Shown here in pieces: positions 16,014 through 28,067 of a stretch of 64,000 nucleotides of DNA. Both the position numbers and the translations under genes were made by a program. Under the pieces are notes generated by a model. It had not been told where the DNA came from and ran no database searches. It was given only the letters and a program-made list of their open reading frames with translations. This DNA comes from Quercus robur. Taxonomy: Eukaryota > Streptophyta > Magnoliopsida > Fagales > Fagaceae. The DNA is taken from the NCBI RefSeq assembly GCF_932294415.1, contig NC_065538.1:16963656-17027655 (forward strand), written 5' to 3'. Numbering within the stretch: the stretch's first letter is position 1; every line of letters starts with the position of its first letter.

Positions 16014-16240
16014 GTTAGTTTTTCATGCTATTTATTTCATTTTTCTTTACATTTTTTTTGTTCTAATTTCAATTACCCCCCTAGCTATCACTTTCTAAAC
16101 ATGCAAAACCAATACAGAGGTTCTATGTTCATTTGTTTCATAAATATAATTTCATATATATATATATATATATATTTATAATGTTAATCTCATCTATCTT
16201 TTAAAAACTGAATTGTCATGGCATGTTTCAAATATGCAAG

Positions 16241-16405
16241 TCTTGAGAAAATGTCGGATCTTTGTCTCTCGGGTCCATGTACGAAAAAGGAGAAGAAACA
16301 GAAAAAGGAGCTTTTTGTTGTGACAATTGTTGCAACATCCGCAGTAGTTTTGGTTCTCCTGTTCTTTTTTTGTGCCCTGACTATCAATAAAAGGAAAAAG
16401 ACAAG
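16241..16405 (+). pseudogene. RLK exon: membrane-spanning segment
   Basis: This exon has DLCLSGPCTKKEKK, which is the NPDLC-like cysteine pair, then a hydrophobic stretch VVTIVATSAVVLVLLFFFCA, and ends with the basic stop-transfer NKRKKTR before the donor GTAAG. It encodes the single transmembrane helix of the receptor. The exon ends in phase 2 while the next kinase exon at 23170 needs phase 1, so a one-base lesion or altered splice site lies between them. Confidence 0.88.
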
Positions 16406-17053
16406 GTAAGCCTTCCTTTTTTATAATTGCTATTACAAATTTACAATATACAGTTCATAGAAGTTAAAAGTTGCAATAGTAACTTAAAAATGATAAATTA
16501 TTGTATAAAAAAAGTAATAAATTATAATTTTCAATTTCAATTTCAATGGAAGCTTTAATCCCATACTACATTAGGAAAATTTGTTGCAATAATTTAAAAT
16601 GAAGAAATCATTGTAATAACTTGATATCAATTATTTTGTATTTTATTGCAACAAAAAAGTCAAAATGATTGTTTATTACAATGAAGTTAACATTTCAATA
16701 ACTTAATATAAATGATTTTACTATCTATTACTACAACAAATATGAAATAATTATGTATTGCATAACATATTTATTATTGTATTAAAGTTGTCATTAAAAT
16801 ATTTAGAGTTTATTGTAATGGAATTTTTTGTTGCACAAACCTATTGTCTTAGATTTTATTGCAACATCTTGTATCAAAGTATTCAAAAAGGTGTTGTTTG
16901 AGAGTATAGGGTCTAAAGCTCTGACTTTCTTGCACTGTAGAATAGTTTGTCCCTTCCTGTGAAGGTGTTGAGAGGTTCCTTGGAGTACCACGTGTACTAC
17001 AAGGCTAGTTGGGTGTTTCTCGAGGGGTTTGGGAAACTTTTGTGAGAGTGTTT

Positions 17054-18655
17054 ATGGAGGATTTGACACAATCTTGGACGCGCCTGTCCCTAACAGAGAG
17101 GGAAGGACCGGGATGCTGTCTCACGCCTGATGAGAGTGTCAAACAATTCTCCATAGCTGCGAGATTCACGACGAGGAGAGCTATCAATGTCGACTCAATA
17201 GCAAGGACTTTCACCCCATTGTGGCGTGCAAAGAAAGGTTTCAAAATTCAAAAGATTGGAGACCATGAGATGTTGTTTTCATTTGACTCTAAAGAGGAGG
17301 TAGATAGAATCCTCAATAGTGAACCATGGAGTTTCGATAAGAATTTGGTGGTTATGCAACGTTATGATCATGATTCACCATTGGAGGATATCAGTTTCGA
17401 AAGAACAAACTTCTGGGTGCAAGTCCATGGATTACCAATAAAATTCATGACCATTGCAGCAGCGGAAAAAATTTGTGGAGTTGTGGGAGAGGTGATTAGC
17501 CAAACGGAGTCGAAGCTTTACGATGGGGGTAATTTTATACGGGTAAAAGTGGCCGTGGATATAAATTTACCACTATGTCGCGGTCGTCTTGTGTCTTTGA
17601 ATGATGAGAAGCAAGTATGGATTTCCTTTAAGTATGAAAGATTACCCAATCTATGCTATTGGTGTGGCTGCCTCACACATGACGACCGGGATTGTGAGCT
17701 TTGGATTGAAAGTGAAGGGTCTCTTAAGAGTGAACAGAGGGAATTCGGTCCTAGTCTACGTGCCCAGCCATTTGTGGCTTCAACAAGACACACTGTCTCG
17801 GTACCAGGCTACTATTCGACTATGAAGAAGACCATGCATGGCAAAGCTGGCGGCCAGAAGGAGAAAAACAGGCCAGCGCAGCCCCACCACCCAGAACCGA
17901 CCACCGGAGCTGAAGCTTTTACACAGGAGGACCGTTACAAAGATGGAATTAATTCCAACTTACCATGCAACGGCCACAGTGTTTCAAGCACAATAAATGC
18001 CAGAATTCCACCTATCACGCATGCATATAATTCTGTGTTTAAGGACTTACCTGAAGCGTCCAACATGGCAGAGAAGTCAACAAGGGCTGCAACGGTTTCA
18101 AACCCCATAAATGTCAAGAATCCTCCTATCACGCAAGCTTGTAATTCGGGGTTTAATGACTTACCTGAAGCGTCCAAAAGTGTAGAGAAGTCAACAAATG
18201 CTGCAAAGGTGCAATCAATGAGAGAATACGTGGGTGACAGGCCAGGAAAGGAAAAATATCCGGATATGGGAGCAGTTAATCCAGATATGGTGCAATCAAT
18301 GGGAAATCAAGAGGGTAAGGTGCCAGAGAAAGAAAGACAGCCGTTTGAGGGAATTAATTCTGGGAATTATGCTGAAGAGTCAAACGGCCAAAAAAGATGT
18401 GACCAGGCTAGGGTTACGCCCACTAGAATTTCGGACCAACCGAAACGTGTTCTACCTGTTTGGACACGCAGAGATAGGCCAGCCACCAAAGGTCTAAGTA
18501 AACCAACAGAAAAAATTACAGGAAAGAAGAGACAATATGTGAGTACCGATGACCATGTTGAATTGTTTTCCAAACGCCTTCAGATTTCTGAGAATGGTGA
18601 AGAGGCATCTAGTATATTGGCGGAGGCTGATGTTCAGCCCCGCCAGGAACAATGA
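17054..18655 (+). CDS. LINE ORF1 (DUF4283 and zinc knuckle, RNA-binding)
   Basis: The product binds element RNA to form the retrotransposition particle. The frame is open from ATG 17009 (548 codons). I favour ATG 17054, because MEDLTQSWTRLSLTEREG looks like the usual N-terminus of plant LINE ORF1 proteins; the 15 residues before it do not. Residues below count from 17009. A DUF4283 domain covers about 45-190 (FTPLWRAKKGFKIQKIGDHE, NFWVQVHGLPIKF). A CX2CX4HX4C zinc knuckle is at about 213-226 (CYWCGCLTHDDRDC). The C-terminal half is low-complexity and basic, with a 38-codon tandem duplication (325-362 and 363-400). The stop TGA overlaps the ORF2 start. Confidence 0.92.
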   Translation: MEDLTQSWTRLSLTEREGPGCCLTPDESVKQFSIAARFTTRRAINVDSIARTFTPLWRAKKGFKIQKIGDHEMLFSFDSKEEVDRILNSEPWSFDKNLVVMQRYDHDSPLEDISFERTNFWVQVHGLPIKFMTIAAAEKICGVVGEVISQTESKLYDGGNFIRVKVAVDINLPLCRGRLVSLNDEKQVWISFKYERLPNLCYWCGCLTHDDRDCELWIESEGSLKSEQREFGPSLRAQPFVASTRHTVSVPGYYSTMKKTMHGKAGGQKEKNRPAQPHHPEPTTGAEAFTQEDRYKDGINSNLPCNGHSVSSTINARIPPITHAYNSVFKDLPEASNMAEKSTRAATVSNPINVKNPPITQACNSGFNDLPEASKSVEKSTNAAKVQSMREYVGDRPGKEKYPDMGAVNPDMVQSMGNQEGKVPEKERQPFEGINSGNYAEESNGQKRCDQARVTPTRISDQPKRVLPVWTRRDRPATKGLSKPTEKITGKKRQYVSTDDHVELFSKRLQISENGEEASSILAEADVQPRQEQ

Positions 18656-21600
18656 GTTGCCTAGCCTGGAACTGTCGTGGGCTTGGGAACCTACGTACAG
18701 GGAGAGAGCTTGTGGAGTTGACACGGGCAAAAGATCCCTCTGTAGTGTTTGTGGCTGAGACACTTACAGATGATGCAAGGCTGGAGATTGTACAAAGAAG
18801 CATGGATTACGATCATAGATGGGTGGTTCCACGGGAGGGTAGAGGTGGTGGCTTGGCTTTGTTTTGGAAGTCTTCAATAAATCTGTCAGTAGTGGGGTCG
18901 TGCAAATATTATATTGATGCTATCGTAGATAGGGGTTCCGAAAATGAATGGAGGCTAACCGGATTCTATGGTGAGCCTGATACAGTAAGAAGATCAGAGG
19001 CATGGGAGAAGCTCAGGTATCTCAATTCTCAATCTGAAGTACCTTGGTTATGCTTTGGGGATTTTAATGAGATAATTAAACAAGATGAAAAGGTGGGAGG
19101 AGCTCTAAGACCCCATAATCAAATGCAATTGTTTAGAGAAGTGTTAGACGAATGTGGGTTTATGGATTTGGGGTATGTGGGACCAAAATTCACATGGGCT
19201 AGACATTATGATAATGGTAACTCAATATGGGAGAGACTAGACCGGGGTTTGGCCACTAATAATTGGTTTTTAAAATTTCCTGGTACAAGGGTTCACAATT
19301 TAAGGTGTGATTCTTCGGATCACAACCCAATCCTCATTGTGTTCTCAGGATTGGATCCTCCTAAAAGGAAGAAAGTATTTCGGTTCGAAGAAATGTGGTT
19401 GTCAAATCCGGGGTGTTCTGAAATTGTGGAAGCCGTGTGGAATAGGTGCGATAATGAATCTTTGGAAGGGATTGTAGGTAGAGTTGAAAAGTGTGGAAGG
19501 GATTTGGGTTGGTGGGAGAAGAATGTGTTTGGGAATGTAAGAAGGGAGTTGGAAAAATTGAAAAAACTTCTACCCAAGGCTGAGGAGGAGGCCATTCTTA
19601 GGGGCGACAATGCTAGAATTAGAGAACTAAGAAAGGAAATTGAAGAATGGCGGGATAAGGAGGCGACAATGTGGGCACAAAGATCAAGAGTTTTATGGGC
19701 AAGACAGGGGGATAAAAATTCAAGGTACTTTCATAGTTGTGCTACAAAAAGGTACCGAAAAAATTTGATTGAAGGTATGAGAGATGAAGAAGGGGCATGG
19801 AAGACCAATCCGGAAGAATTTACAGAAATCCTTGTAAGCTACTACCATTCACTTTTCAACTCCACGGGTCAGTTGGATTCTTCACAGGTATGGGAGTGCG
19901 TACCTAGGGTGATTACTGATGAGATGAATGCCCTATTATGCAAGAAATTTGAAGTACATGAAGTAGAAGTGGCTTTGAATCAAATGGCTCCCCTCAAAGC
20001 CCCTGGTCCAGACGGAATGCCACCTCTTTTCTACCAACACTTTTGGGGAACCGTTAATCATGATGTTACTGCCTCCATCCTCATGTGGCTAAATTCAGGT
20101 ACCTTGCCCCAATCTATTAACCATACTTTTATCACGTTGATACCCAAAACACACTCCCCAGAATATGCCCACCAATTTCGCCCTATTAGTTTGTGTAACG
20201 TGTTGTATAAAATTTTTTCTAAAGTTTTAGCCAACCGTTTAAAAAAAGTCTTACCTTCAATTATCACAGAACACCAATCTGCCTTTACCAAAGATAGACT
20301 TATTTCTGATAATATAATGGTGGCTTTTGAGACTTTGCATTGTTTACAACGTTATAATTCTGGATCGCATGGGTATATGGCAGTTAAACTTGACATGAGT
20401 AAGGCCTATGATAGGGTGGAATGGCCTTTTTTGGAGGGTATAATGAGGCGGATGGGTTTCAATGAAGGCTGGATAAATCTGATTATGTTGTGTGTTAAAA
20501 CTGTTACATACTCGGTGTTGGTGAATGGAGAACCTTGTGGAATGATTCACCCTACAAGGGGCATTAGGCAAGGCGACCCCATTTCCCCTTTCCTCTTTTT
20601 GCTATGCACTGAAGGGTTGAATGGGTTGCTCAAAAAAGCAGAAGGGAATGGGGATATTCATGGTTTCTCAATCTGTAGAAGAGGCCCAAAACTAACACAT
20701 TTGCTTTTTGCAGATGATAGTCTTCTTTTTTGCAGGGCAACAATGGAGGAGTGTGGTAAAGTATTGGAATTTTTAAATGCCTATGAAGTTGCTTCTGGCC
20801 AAAAACTAAATAGAAGCAAGACAGCATTGTTTTTTAGCAAATCAACCAATGAAGTTCTAAAGGAGCAAATTAAAGAGGCATGGGGTGTACCAGAAATTAT
20901 GCAATATGAGAAGTACTTGGGTCTACCATCCTTTGTGGGGAAAAGGAAAAAAGCAAGTTTCAATTACATTAAGGAGCGTGTGTGGAGAAAGCTTCAAGGA
21001 TGGGAGGGGAAGTTACTTTCACAAGCCGGTAGGGAGGTATTGATAAAATCCGTTATCCAAGCCATCCCCACATACACCATGGGATGTTTCAAAATTCCAA
21101 TCGGTCTATGCAATGAAATTGAGACCATGATTAAAAAATTTTGGTGGGGACAACGTGGAGATCGAAGGAAGATACATTGGGTCAAGTGGGATGAGTTGAC
21201 TAAAGCCAAAGGAGTGGGTGGCATGGGCTTTAGAGACTTAGCCAAATTCAATGACTCTCTATTAGCAAAGCAAGCGTGGAGGCTCTTGCATAATCATAAC
21301 TCCCTTTTCTACAAAGTGTTCAAGGCGCGGTTTTTTCCAAATTCAACCATTATGGAGGCCAAGGAATCAAGGATGGGGTCTTATGCTTGGAGGAGCATAC
21401 TTGTAGGGAGGGATGTCATTCGAAGGGGAGCTAGATGGAGAGTCGGTGATGGAAAAAAAATTCGAATTTGGCAAGATCATTGGCTACCAAGAAAACATCC
21501 ACCACAAGTACTTTCTTCTCCCTTGACAGATTTTGAAAACTCTAGAGTTGATATTCTTATAGACCCAAGTACGAGGAGGTGGGATGAAGAGATGCTACAC

Positions 21601-22755
21601 GGGCTGTTCAGTGCAGAGGAGGCAGAGCTAATCAAGACCATCCCCTTGAGTAGTGGAGCTTCCGAAGATATCCTATATTGGCCTCACTCAAGCAATGGTC
21701 ACTATAGTTGCAAGACCGGTTATAAATTCTTAAAAATGGAGGAGGAGCTGCCTGCTGCACCACAAGAATCCGTAAATGAAGAGAAGAAACTGTGGAATGG
21801 AATATGGTCACTCCAAGTTCCCCCCAAGGTGAAAACACTACTTTGGCGTGCATGCCGTGAAGCTATGCTGACAAAGAAGGCTTTATTCCGTCGAACTATT
21901 GCAACGGACTCAGACTGTGTTAGATGTCACGGCCATGATGAAGATTCATTGCATGCTTTGTGGTCCTGCCCAGAACTAGACACGGTGTGGTCTGACTTGG
22001 AGCTTTGGAATTTCAGGTGTGATGTTCAGTTCATGACCTTCAAGGAGCTGCTGTCATGGTTAATTGCAAACAACCATCAAACAGAGGTCTTTGCTGTAAC
22101 GGTTTGGACAATCTGGAACCAGCGGAACCGGGTTCGTCTCAACCAACCGGCAGACTCACTTCACCAAATCCCTCAGATTTCAAAGTCTTGGCTAGCCGAA
22201 TATCAAGCTCGGCAACTTCCTGTGACTACTCCAGTGCAGCAGAACCGAAATACCAGACCTCTTTGGAGACCTCCACCATCGGAGCTTTTCAAAATAAATT
22301 TCGATGGCGCCGTCTTCAAACAAGATAAGAAGTCTGGCATTGGAGTCGTTATAAGAGATCACCAGGGCTCTGTTATTGCCTCATGCTCAAAACCGGTGCA
22401 CCAGGAGCTAGGCAGTGAGGATGTTGAAGCAAAGGCTGCGGCATGGGCTCTGGTTTTTGCTTTGGATGTGGGGGTGAAAAGGGTAGTACTTGAGGGTGAT
22501 TCTCTGTCTGTTATCAAAGGATTAATGGGGGAAGGAAGGCTGCTAACTCCAATGGGATTGATCATTGAGGAGGCCAAACATTTATCTAGACATTTTGAAG
22601 AATTACATTACTCTCATGTTAAGAGGGATTGTAATAGTTTAGCTCATAATCTGGCTAGACATGCCGCTGGCATTCCGGATTTGTTAGTTTGGATGGAGGA
22701 TATTCCTTCACATTTTCATGATGTATTGCAAGCCGATTTATTAGGCTTACCTTAA
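18652..22755 (+). CDS. LINE ORF2: endonuclease, reverse transcriptase, RNase H
   Basis: The 1367-codon product nicks target DNA and copies the element RNA into it. The N-terminal endonuclease/exonuclease/phosphatase domain (1-230) has WNCRG (6-10), Glu36 in VFVAET, CFGDFNE, and the catalytic SSDHNP with Asp223 and His224. The reverse transcriptase (about 440-760) has KAPGPDG, LDMSKAYDRVEW, RGIRQGDPISPFLF and the FADD box at 686-689. A zf-RVT region follows (about 1040-1130, WRACREAMLTKKALF and CxxC...H). RNase H is C-terminal: FDGA (Asp1218), EAKAAAWAL, LEGDS and NSLAHNLARHA. All key residues are present with no break. It starts inside the ORF1 stop (ATGA), suggesting coupled re-initiation. 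Confidence 0.95.
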   Translation: MSCLAWNCRGLGNLRTGRELVELTRAKDPSVVFVAETLTDDARLEIVQRSMDYDHRWVVPREGRGGGLALFWKSSINLSVVGSCKYYIDAIVDRGSENEWRLTGFYGEPDTVRRSEAWEKLRYLNSQSEVPWLCFGDFNEIIKQDEKVGGALRPHNQMQLFREVLDECGFMDLGYVGPKFTWARHYDNGNSIWERLDRGLATNNWFLKFPGTRVHNLRCDSSDHNPILIVFSGLDPPKRKKVFRFEEMWLSNPGCSEIVEAVWNRCDNESLEGIVGRVEKCGRDLGWWEKNVFGNVRRELEKLKKLLPKAEEEAILRGDNARIRELRKEIEEWRDKEATMWAQRSRVLWARQGDKNSRYFHSCATKRYRKNLIEGMRDEEGAWKTNPEEFTEILVSYYHSLFNSTGQLDSSQVWECVPRVITDEMNALLCKKFEVHEVEVALNQMAPLKAPGPDGMPPLFYQHFWGTVNHDVTASILMWLNSGTLPQSINHTFITLIPKTHSPEYAHQFRPISLCNVLYKIFSKVLANRLKKVLPSIITEHQSAFTKDRLISDNIMVAFETLHCLQRYNSGSHGYMAVKLDMSKAYDRVEWPFLEGIMRRMGFNEGWINLIMLCVKTVTYSVLVNGEPCGMIHPTRGIRQGDPISPFLFLLCTEGLNGLLKKAEGNGDIHGFSICRRGPKLTHLLFADDSLLFCRATMEECGKVLEFLNAYEVASGQKLNRSKTALFFSKSTNEVLKEQIKEAWGVPEIMQYEKYLGLPSFVGKRKKASFNYIKERVWRKLQGWEGKLLSQAGREVLIKSVIQAIPTYTMGCFKIPIGLCNEIETMIKKFWWGQRGDRRKIHWVKWDELTKAKGVGGMGFRDLAKFNDSLLAKQAWRLLHNHNSLFYKVFKARFFPNSTIMEAKESRMGSYAWRSILVGRDVIRRGARWRVGDGKKIRIWQDHWLPRKHPPQVLSSPLTDFENSRVDILIDPSTRRWDEEMLHGLFSAEEAELIKTIPLSSGASEDILYWPHSSNGHYSCKTGYKFLKMEEELPAAPQESVNEEKKLWNGIWSLQVPPKVKTLLWRACREAMLTKKALFRRTIATDSDCVRCHGHDEDSLHALWSCPELDTVWSDLELWNFRCDVQFMTFKELLSWLIANNHQTEVFAVTVWTIWNQRNRVRLNQPADSLHQIPQISKSWLAEYQARQLPVTTPVQQNRNTRPLWRPPPSELFKINFDGAVFKQDKKSGIGVVIRDHQGSVIASCSKPVHQELGSEDVEAKAAAWALVFALDVGVKRVVLEGDSLSVIKGLMGEGRLLTPMGLIIEEAKHLSRHFEELHYSHVKRDCNSLAHNLARHAAGIPDLLVWMEDIPSHFHDVLQADLLGLP

Positions 22756-23169
22756 TAAAAGTATGGTACGTGTCTTTCTCAAAAAAAAAAAAAAAAAACT
22801 ATTGCAATTACTCTGATGTTATTGCATTTTTTTTTTTTTTTTTTTTTGTATAAACATATTTTCTAGTAGTGGAAGCTTTGTTGAGTATAGAGAAAGTATG
22901 CTTAAATTTTTTCAAGGAGGTTTGGTTTAGGTCATTTTGGTCACTCAGTAGTTGTTCTAGCAATAATTCTCCATTTAAATTTGTAGTAGAAATCTATGGC
23001 GACAATGTTGCTTGTGATGGTTAGACTATGATATTTGTGGGTGGCAATGAGTAGAAATTTGTGGGTTTTGATATTTATTTTTATAAGTTTAAGTAATTCA
23101 AGATTAAGGGAACAAAAATTACTCTCACTTTTTTTTGTGTATTACATGTGATCATTTCCTTTACTGTAG

Positions 23170-27658: not shown

Positions 27659-28067
27659 GTCTCAAGCATCTGGAAAATTAAATAAAAAAAGTGATGTTTA
27701 TAGTTTTGGTATTGTTCTATTTGAGATAATCACCGGTCGTCCAGCAATAATGAGAAAAAGTGAAGAAAGCACTCACATACTTGATTAGGTTTATCCTGTG
27801 ATTGAAAGTGGGGATATTGGAAGCATAGTTGATTCAAGATTACATGGAGAATTCTACACCAATTCTGCCTGGAAAACTGTGGAGATAGCCATGTCATGCA
27901 CACCATCAGCTGCAATCCAAAGGCCAGATATGAGTCAAGTATTGGTAGAACTAAAGGAATGTTTGGCACTAGAGATGGCTCATGGAAGTAGCCAAACAAT
28001 GGCAACTGAGGCCAATGAAATATACTCTATGGAGCTTCAATCAGATATTGATGCCCTGGTTAGGTAG
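27659..28067 (+). pseudogene. RLK last exon: C-terminal kinase lobe with nonsense codon
   Basis: The exon begins after acceptor CATACAG and reads SQASGKLNKKSDVYSFGIVL (subdomain IX), FEIITGRPA, then HILD and a TAG at 27786-27788 where the family has Trp (expected HIxxWV). The same frame continues VYPVIESGDIGSIVDSRLHG, WKTVEIAMSCTPSAAIQRPD and MSQVLVELKECL to a natural stop at 28065-28067. A single G-to-A change (TGG to TAG) explains the break. It would remove the last kinase subdomains. Confidence 0.93.

What the first reader, a model, noticed from the sequence alone, without database searches (positions are those of the whole stretch)
16865..22798. A LINE with two unbroken ORFs inside a dead receptor-kinase gene
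Seen: ORF1 and ORF2 are both open, with endonuclease (Glu36, Asp223, His224), FADD and RNase H residues in place, and an 18-A tail remains. Nearly all other elements here are broken. Inference: this copy is young and may be able to move. Its 3' UTR is only about 25 bp, with the poly(A) signal overlapping the stop codon, which is unusually compact.
Basis: partly seen in the sequence, partly recalled or inferred. Interest (0 to 1): 0.75.

Follow-up and report, generated by a model that had tools for sequence, protein, structure and literature searches.

The report
Young plant LINE in receptor-kinase intron
This is a recently inserted, near-full-length plant LINE retrotransposon whose two genes are both open; it belongs to a known kind, but its family keeps an unusually tight joint between the two genes and at its 3' end.

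Summary
The LINE is real: ORF1 17054-18655 and ORF2 18652-22755 are open, with the expected domains. Of 17 genome copies aligned, ten span both ORFs and all ten are broken. W has the shortest private branch of its subfamily (2 changes in 1560 bp; L009 4, L029 11), so it is young. Corrections: the element starts at 16892, not 16865; empty sites in two paralogous introns show 14 extra nt and at most a 2-bp target duplication; W lacks the family's first 7 nt; the fourth RNase H acidic residue is His, also in 17 of 17 copies. The receptor-kinase copy has TAG where three paralogs have TGG, but the LINE sits in an intron. Family traits: ATGA stop-start overlap (25 of 25 copies assessed), AATAAA overlapping the ORF2 stop with a 21-28-nt 3' UTR (W and 17 of 17), and low synonymous change around the overlap. 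Best reading: a young plant L1 that probably translates ORF2 by termination-reinitiation. Expression and mobility are untested.

The parts
16548..16556 (+). GGAAGCTTT, left copy of a 9-bp direct repeat that flanks the older MITE-like repeat into which the LINE inserted
   Evidence: also in paralogous intron L031, and as AGAAGCTTT in L032
16557..22870 (.). MITE-like repeat (about 393 bp without the insertion), multicopy in the genome, interrupted by the LINE; the name is a reading from its size, copy number and 9-bp flanks
   Evidence: (560 candidates, 40 scored, 79 match rows)
16876..16877 (+). AA: the only possible target-site duplication (0-2 bp)
   Evidence: empty site TATCAA|CTATTGC in L031 and L032
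16878..16891 (+). 14-nt extra stretch, absent from both empty sites and from the other LINE copies matched
16892..17053 (+). LINE 5' end and 5' UTR (162 nt), lacking the GTTTCTC found at the start of full-length relatives; no ATG
17054..18655 (+). ORF1, 533 aa: DUF4283 (45-166) and CCHC zinc knuckle (201-214)
17981..18208 (+). in-frame 114-nt tandem duplication in ORF1 (82% identical)
18602..18741 (+). stretch of low synonymous change around the ORF1/ORF2 joint (limits chosen after looking)
18617..18646 (+). predicted hairpin ending 5 nt before the ORF2 ATG
18652..18655 (+). ATGA: ORF2 start overlapping ORF1 stop
18652..22755 (+). ORF2, 1367 aa: endonuclease, reverse transcriptase, zf-RVT, C-terminal RNase H
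18672..18700 (+). predicted hairpin just inside ORF2
22754..22759 (+). AATAAA poly(A) signal overlapping the ORF2 stop (TAA 22753-22755)
22756..22780 (+). 25-nt 3' UTR
22781..22798 (+). A18 tail
22871..22879 (+). GGAAGCTTT, right copy of the 9-bp repeat flanking the MITE-like element
27786..27788 (+). TAG in the last kinase exon of the host receptor-kinase copy; TGG in paralogs L041, L042, L043

Best explanation
A recently inserted, nearly full-length L1-type LINE of the plant kind with a C-terminal RNase H. Shown: two open ORFs, their domains, a genomic family, the shortest branch of its subfamily, and the exact empty site. Inferred: it was copied by target-primed reverse transcription from a poly(A) mRNA; the endonuclease nicked the lower strand opposite C|AACTATTGC, the other strand was cut 0-2 bp away, and the cDNA 5' end was joined with a 14-nt extra stretch after losing about 7 nt. 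Inferred: one dicistronic mRNA is made, and ribosomes that finish ORF1 restart at the overlapping AUG of ORF2, aided by conserved RNA sequence or structure around the ATGA (this step alone about 0.6). Inferred: the mRNA's poly(A) tail, set by an AAUAAA built into the end of ORF2, is what reverse transcription starts on, so almost no 3' UTR is needed.
For: Domains and residues. ORF2 dN/dS against W 0.09-0.18 (17 copies), ORF1 0.14-0.46 (10 copies). All ten other aligned copies that span both ORFs are broken. 25 of 25 W+L009 diagnostic sites shared by L029; private changes W 2, L009 4, L029 11 in 1560 bp; W and L009 group with support 1.00 and branches of 0.0016 and 0.0018. Empty site in two paralogs. 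Target duplications in relatives: L013 14 bp, L011 16 bp with one mismatch, L009 9-13 bp, its last 4 being also the LINE's own letters. Duplications of L011, L012, L016, L017, L018 start Y|AAC or Y|AAG, as the site of W would. ATGA in 11 of 11 aligned copies and 14 of 14 more distant ones (4 of the 18 fetched lacked the search motif and were not assessed). AATAAA overlapping the stop in W and 17 of 17. Synonymous change at the joint versus the rest, in three pairs that share no branch on the tree: W/L018 6/34 v 409/1229, L022/L023 3/21 v 294/918, L027/L025 4/32 v 428/859. 42 ATGs, ORF1's own included, precede the ORF2 ATG, and no -1 slippery heptamer lies in 18600-18651.
Against: No transcript, protein or mobility data. 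No usual target-site duplication in W. The missing first 7 nt and the His in RNase H may lower activity, although the His is a family trait. The hairpins show little covariation (13 sequences: 385 of 500 shuffles reach the score; 20 sequences: 35 of 500). The limits of the synonymous test were chosen after looking; the three independent pairs give p = 0.037, 0.062 and 1.5e-5; in four of the seven pairs compared, 92 to 277 of 1349 to 1675 windows are as low as the joint. A second trough at FADD is as low, so the joint is not unique. The UGGGA motif of viral restart signals is not in 18501-18651 of W and occurs only downstream, at 18684.
Confidence: 0.85

Rival explanations
1. One reading: element 16865-22798 (implying an 8-bp TATTGCAA target duplication).
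For: TATTGCAA occurs at 16857-16864 and 22800-22807.
Against: Both TATTGCAA motifs stand in the empty sites L031 and L032, with a near-identical stretch ending in TCTTGTATCAA between them. Relatives match only from 16892 on. A score of 8 or more was reached in 10 of 110 cross-copy controls.
Confidence: 0.02
2. ORF2 is reached otherwise: internal ribosome entry, leaky scanning, frameshifting, or a separate mRNA. The synonymous constraint would then reflect an entry site or another overlapping signal.
For: Low synonymous change extends some 90 nt into ORF2, which an upstream-only restart signal would not need (though a review reports a downstream structure for the stop-start LINE SART1; PMC5972666, passages).
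Against: 42 ATGs before the ORF2 ATG; no slippery heptamer in 18600-18651 and an ORF2 frame closed until 18631. The exact ATGA overlap is kept in 25 of 25 copies assessed, which internal entry would not require. A third overlapping ORF is unlikely: its 3' end varies from +50 to +146 among 25 sequences.
Confidence: 0.3
3. The 14-nt extra stretch is a 5' transduction: the source RNA began upstream of the source element. Full-length relatives carry unrelated stretches between target duplication and GTTTCTC: L010 56 nt, L011 3, L012 61, L013 8, L017 68, L018 51 (L016 35, but in what looks like a tandem-repeat target).
For: Duplication scores: L010 11, L011 13, L012 12, L013 14, L016 14, L017 11, L018 15, against a highest score of 10 in 110 cross-copy controls; L014 (4), L015 (5), W (8) and L009 (9) do not pass.
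Against: No other match reaches upstream of 16892, so none shares W's 14 nt. The extensions of 14 nt or more match no other fetched LINE copy next to its start (L012's has a 25-nt match some 530 nt upstream of L013's start). Genome-wide searches did not complete. End-joining filler would look the same.
Confidence: 0.4
4. An old insertion kept open by selection for a host function.
For: It is the one copy with both ORFs open among eleven that span both.
Against: Shortest private branch of its subfamily. Neutral decay without a disabling hit is compatible with up to about 0.4% divergence (95% bound at 0.1 indels per substitution), which covers the 0.13-0.18% seen.
Confidence: 0.03

Closest known systems
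Ta11-type L1 elements of plants with an Archaea-like RNase H (PMC5348765, passages)
   Same: L1-type ORF2 with C-terminal RNase H and a Cys/His motif upstream of it; Arg (R1325) where I take the Arg that marks this RNase H type to lie.
   Different: Last catalytic Asp is His in W and 17 of 17 copies. Placement against Ta11 itself was not possible (no plant reference sequences held).
Celine, LINE of poplar (PMC11288735, passages)
   Same: DUF4283 in ORF1, two overlapping ORFs, poly(A) tail; mostly broken copies (14 of 58 full-length ones intact).
   Different: Celine has a 635-bp 5' UTR and a 189-bp 3' UTR; here about 162 and 25 nt. The passages seen name no RNase H. Whether the family here favours centromeres was not tested.
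SART1 of silkworm and other termination-reinitiation systems (PMC5972666, passages)
   Same: Stop and start codons of the two ORFs overlap; conserved sequence downstream of the start.
   Different: Here inferred from sequence only; no UGGGA motif upstream in W.
Human LINE-1 ORF2p (PDB 8c8j, 9k6g and others)
   Same: Residues 307-882 align to the solved ORF2p (E about 10^-45).
   Different: Mammalian L1 has a 63-nt spacer between its ORFs (PMC5972666); that it has no RNase H is recalled.

Membership tests
Plant L1 LINE (Ta11-type, with RNase H) | ORF1 with DUF4283 and CCHC knuckle (DUF4283 after the Celine paper; knuckle recalled) | tested here: met
   PF14111 E 9.6e-22, PF14392 E 1.7e-13
Plant L1 LINE (Ta11-type, with RNase H) | ORF2 with endonuclease and reverse transcriptase | tested here: met
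   PF03372 E 3.5e-11, PF00078 E 3.5e-31; ORF2p structures
Plant L1 LINE (Ta11-type, with RNase H) | RNase H at the ORF2 C-terminus with Cys/His motif upstream | tested here: met
   PF13456 at 1216-1338 and PF13966 at 1018-1113
Plant L1 LINE (Ta11-type, with RNase H) | Catalytic D-E-D-R-D of Archaea-like RNase H | tested here: inconclusive
   D1218, E1259, D1283, R1325 present, last Asp replaced by His1332 (single copies L014 and L018 have lost D1218 or E1259); whether plant L1s in general have this His was not tested
Plant L1 LINE (Ta11-type, with RNase H) | Poly(A) tail and target-site duplications by target-primed reverse transcription | tested here: inconclusive
   A18 in W; duplications above the control range in 7 of 11 copies examined; W itself has 0-2 bp
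Plant L1 LINE (Ta11-type, with RNase H) | Phylogenetic grouping with Ta11 | not testable with these tools
   no plant reference elements held
Termination-reinitiation (stop-start) dicistronic RNA | Overlapping stop and start codons, conserved | tested here: met
   25 of 25 copies assessed
Termination-reinitiation (stop-start) dicistronic RNA | UGGGA 18S-complementary motif 40-90 nt upstream (calicivirus type) | tested here: not met
   no TGGGA in 18501-18651 of W; nearest at 18684, downstream
Termination-reinitiation (stop-start) dicistronic RNA | ORF2 translation depends on ORF1 termination | not testable with these tools
   needs a reporter assay

The most novel reading that the evidence does not exclude
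This plant L1 clade carries a conserved cis-acting RNA element of about 140 nt spanning the ATGA stop-start joint (a hairpin before, an open AUGA, a hairpin after) that makes terminating ribosomes restart on ORF2, and it has fused its poly(A) signal with the ORF2 stop: an L1 with nearly no noncoding sequence once ORF1 has started.
Probability: 0.4. Interest if true: 0.6.

Novelty: new member of a known kind. Interest (0 to 1): 0.4.

Why it matters
How plant LINEs express ORF2 from one mRNA seems unsettled: in the passages seen, the Celine authors only suggest reinitiation or internal entry. A conserved four-base overlap with low synonymous change around it is a testable site. A young, open copy with a base-exact empty site also gives a clean case of a LINE insertion almost without target duplication.

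Tried and rejected
Rejected: 8-bp target duplication. Rejected: overlapping third ORF as cause of the synonymous trough. No covariation support for the first hairpin alone. AlphaFold models of ORF1 1-225 and ORF2 1017-1367 without alignment had mean pLDDT 37 and 41 and were not used. CpG ratio of the LINE (0.49) lies inside the range of other 5.9-kb stretches (0.22-0.62) and says nothing on age. dN/dS of 0.96 between the two 114-nt units in ORF1 shows no constraint there. One protein scan of viral contigs matched nothing. Literature: the nine answered searches (capped listings of up to 20 titles) showed no paper on an ATGA overlap or an AATAAA-stop fusion in plant LINEs; the library lacks most subscription papers. 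Five papers were seen, all in passages only. Not done: 18S rRNA comparison, genome-wide origin of the 5' extensions, insertion polymorphism.

Full report
Observation. The stretch holds two long open frames on the + strand: ORF1 17054-18655 and ORF2 18652-22755. Pfam names DUF4283 and a CCHC knuckle in ORF1, and endonuclease, reverse transcriptase, zf-RVT and an RNase H domain in ORF2. Residues 307-882 of ORF2 align to solved human LINE-1 ORF2p. The endonuclease residues and FADD are present. The 3' UTR is 25 nt, AATAAA overlaps the stop, and an A18 tail follows. RNase H has D1218, E1259, D1283 and R1325, but the position aligned to the last Asp of two solved enzymes (weak matches, E 0.0087 and 0.11) is His1332; the same His stands in 17 of 17 copies.

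Family. The window lies in a 786-Mb genome of 42 contigs. A 601-bp RT query scored 40 of 1145 candidates. I fetched 20 copies, later one more, and 18 short pieces at the ORF joint. Seventeen of the 20 copies were aligned over their LINE range (L021, L024 and L026 were not). Ten of these span both ORFs (L010-L013, L015-L018, L022, L027), and all ten carry stops or frameshifts. The four nearest full-length copies (96.4-97.8% identical) have one to three stops each and no frameshift. ORF2 dN/dS against W is 0.09-0.18 (17 copies) and ORF1 0.14-0.46 (10 copies), so the lineage was under selection for both proteins.

Age. L009, a 5'-truncated copy, is 99.64% identical over 2799 bp. Of the ten differences five are W-derived, four L009-derived and one unclear. 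L029, also truncated, shares 25 of 25 sites that set W and L009 apart from L010-L013; in 1560 bp W has 2 private changes, L009 4 and L029 11. On an ORF2 tree of W and 17 copies W's branch is 0.0016. So W's private branch is 0.13-0.18%. With plant rates recalled from memory (1-7 x 10^-9 per site per year) this is at most about 0.3-1.8 million years. With no selection, open ORFs alone allow up to about 0.4% (95% bound at 0.1 indels per substitution).

Empty site and ends. The 5' flank has two close paralogs: L031 on the same contig, 0.3 Mb away, and L032 on another. Both have the receptor-kinase intron and the MITE-like repeat but no LINE, and read TATCAA|CTATTGC at the site. W therefore holds 14 extra nt (16878-16891), the LINE from 16892, and A18; at most AA is duplicated. 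Full-length relatives begin GTTTCTC then TGTTG or TGCTG, so W has lost 7 nt. A search in 11 copies (W included) with 110 cross-copy controls (highest score 10) found duplications scoring 11-15 in seven: L010, L011, L012, L013, L016, L017, L018. They are set back from the 5' end by unrelated stretches of 56, 3, 61, 8, 35, 68 and 51 nt; the target of L016 looks like a tandem repeat, so that one is uncertain. L014, L015 and W gave none above controls. L009 scored 9, within the control range (4 of 110 reach 9); its 13-bp match includes 4 letters of the LINE's own start.

The ORF joint. ORF1 stop and ORF2 start share ATGA. It is kept in 11 of 11 aligned copies and in 14 of 14 more distant copies in which the ORF2 start motif was found; 4 of the 18 pieces fetched lacked that motif and were not assessed. 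L024 and L026 also have it, but were found by a search that required it and are not counted. A hairpin just upstream is more stable than 1994 of 2000 synonymous recodings. Synonymous change is low around the joint: of 1699 windows of 14 codons, one at the end of ORF1 (18605) ranks 15th from the bottom, and one near the start of ORF2 (18673) shares the lowest value with a window at FADD (20689). Across eight representatives, ORF2 codons 1-30 differ synonymously in 0.15-0.16 of comparisons against 0.38-0.60 after codon 60. For seven pairs Fisher p values were 0.037, 0.062, 1.5e-5, 2.3e-5, 0.11, 0.031 and 4.3e-6; only the first three share no branch on the tree, and the limits were chosen after looking. 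RNAalifold places a hairpin on each side of the AUGA; pair counts give 96.3% paired cells and a covariation score reached by 35 of 500 shuffles, which is weak. A third overlapping ORF is made unlikely by its varying ends.

The 3' end. AATAAA is kept in 17 of 17 copies. In 14 of the 17 the ORF2 stop, read in W's register, is the TAA inside AATAAA; in W, L009, L025 and L027 it is one codon earlier and overlaps the signal. The 3' UTR is 21-28 nt in all 18. This fits an L1 that primes on poly(A) and needs no 3' UTR of its own; that step is inference.

Setting. The LINE lies in the same orientation as the gene, in an intron between an exon read by eye as transmembrane (16212-16409) and the first kinase exon. 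Four exon pieces pass Pfam's cut-off for a protein kinase; LRR and malectin-like matches stay below cut-off, and the transmembrane piece matches nothing, so 'LRR receptor kinase' is partly my reading. The last kinase exon has TAG at 27786-27788 where L041, L042 and L043 have TGG. W also differs from L031 by a 9-bp gap at the start of the first kinase exon. A last-exon query gave 42 match rows, 33 of them on the same contig between 15.2 and 17.5 Mb, so this is one broken member of a receptor-kinase cluster.

Verdict. A new, young member of a known kind. The two compact, conserved joints are the part worth following.

Noticed in passing
17981-18208: In-frame 114-nt tandem duplication in ORF1, present in W and L010-L013 but single in L015-L017, although its two units (82% identical) differ more than W and L015 do (about 92%).
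   Followed up: partly
L010, L012, L017, L018 (5' ends): Full-length relatives carry unrelated 51-68 nt stretches between target duplication and the conserved 5' end; origin unknown.
   Followed up: partly
20683-20740: Second trough of synonymous change, over the RT FADD motif.
   Followed up: no
window 22775-22780; 5' ends of L010-L013: Full-length relatives start GTTTCTC and this element ends TTTCTC before its A-tail: the same six letters at both ends.
   Followed up: no
contig C5, 15.2-17.5 Mb of G000: Large cluster of receptor-kinase genes (last-exon query: 33 of 42 match rows lie here).
   Followed up: no
22827-22847: T21 run 28 nt after the A18 tail, so the two could pair as an inverted repeat; the T run belongs to the older repeat.
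   Followed up: no
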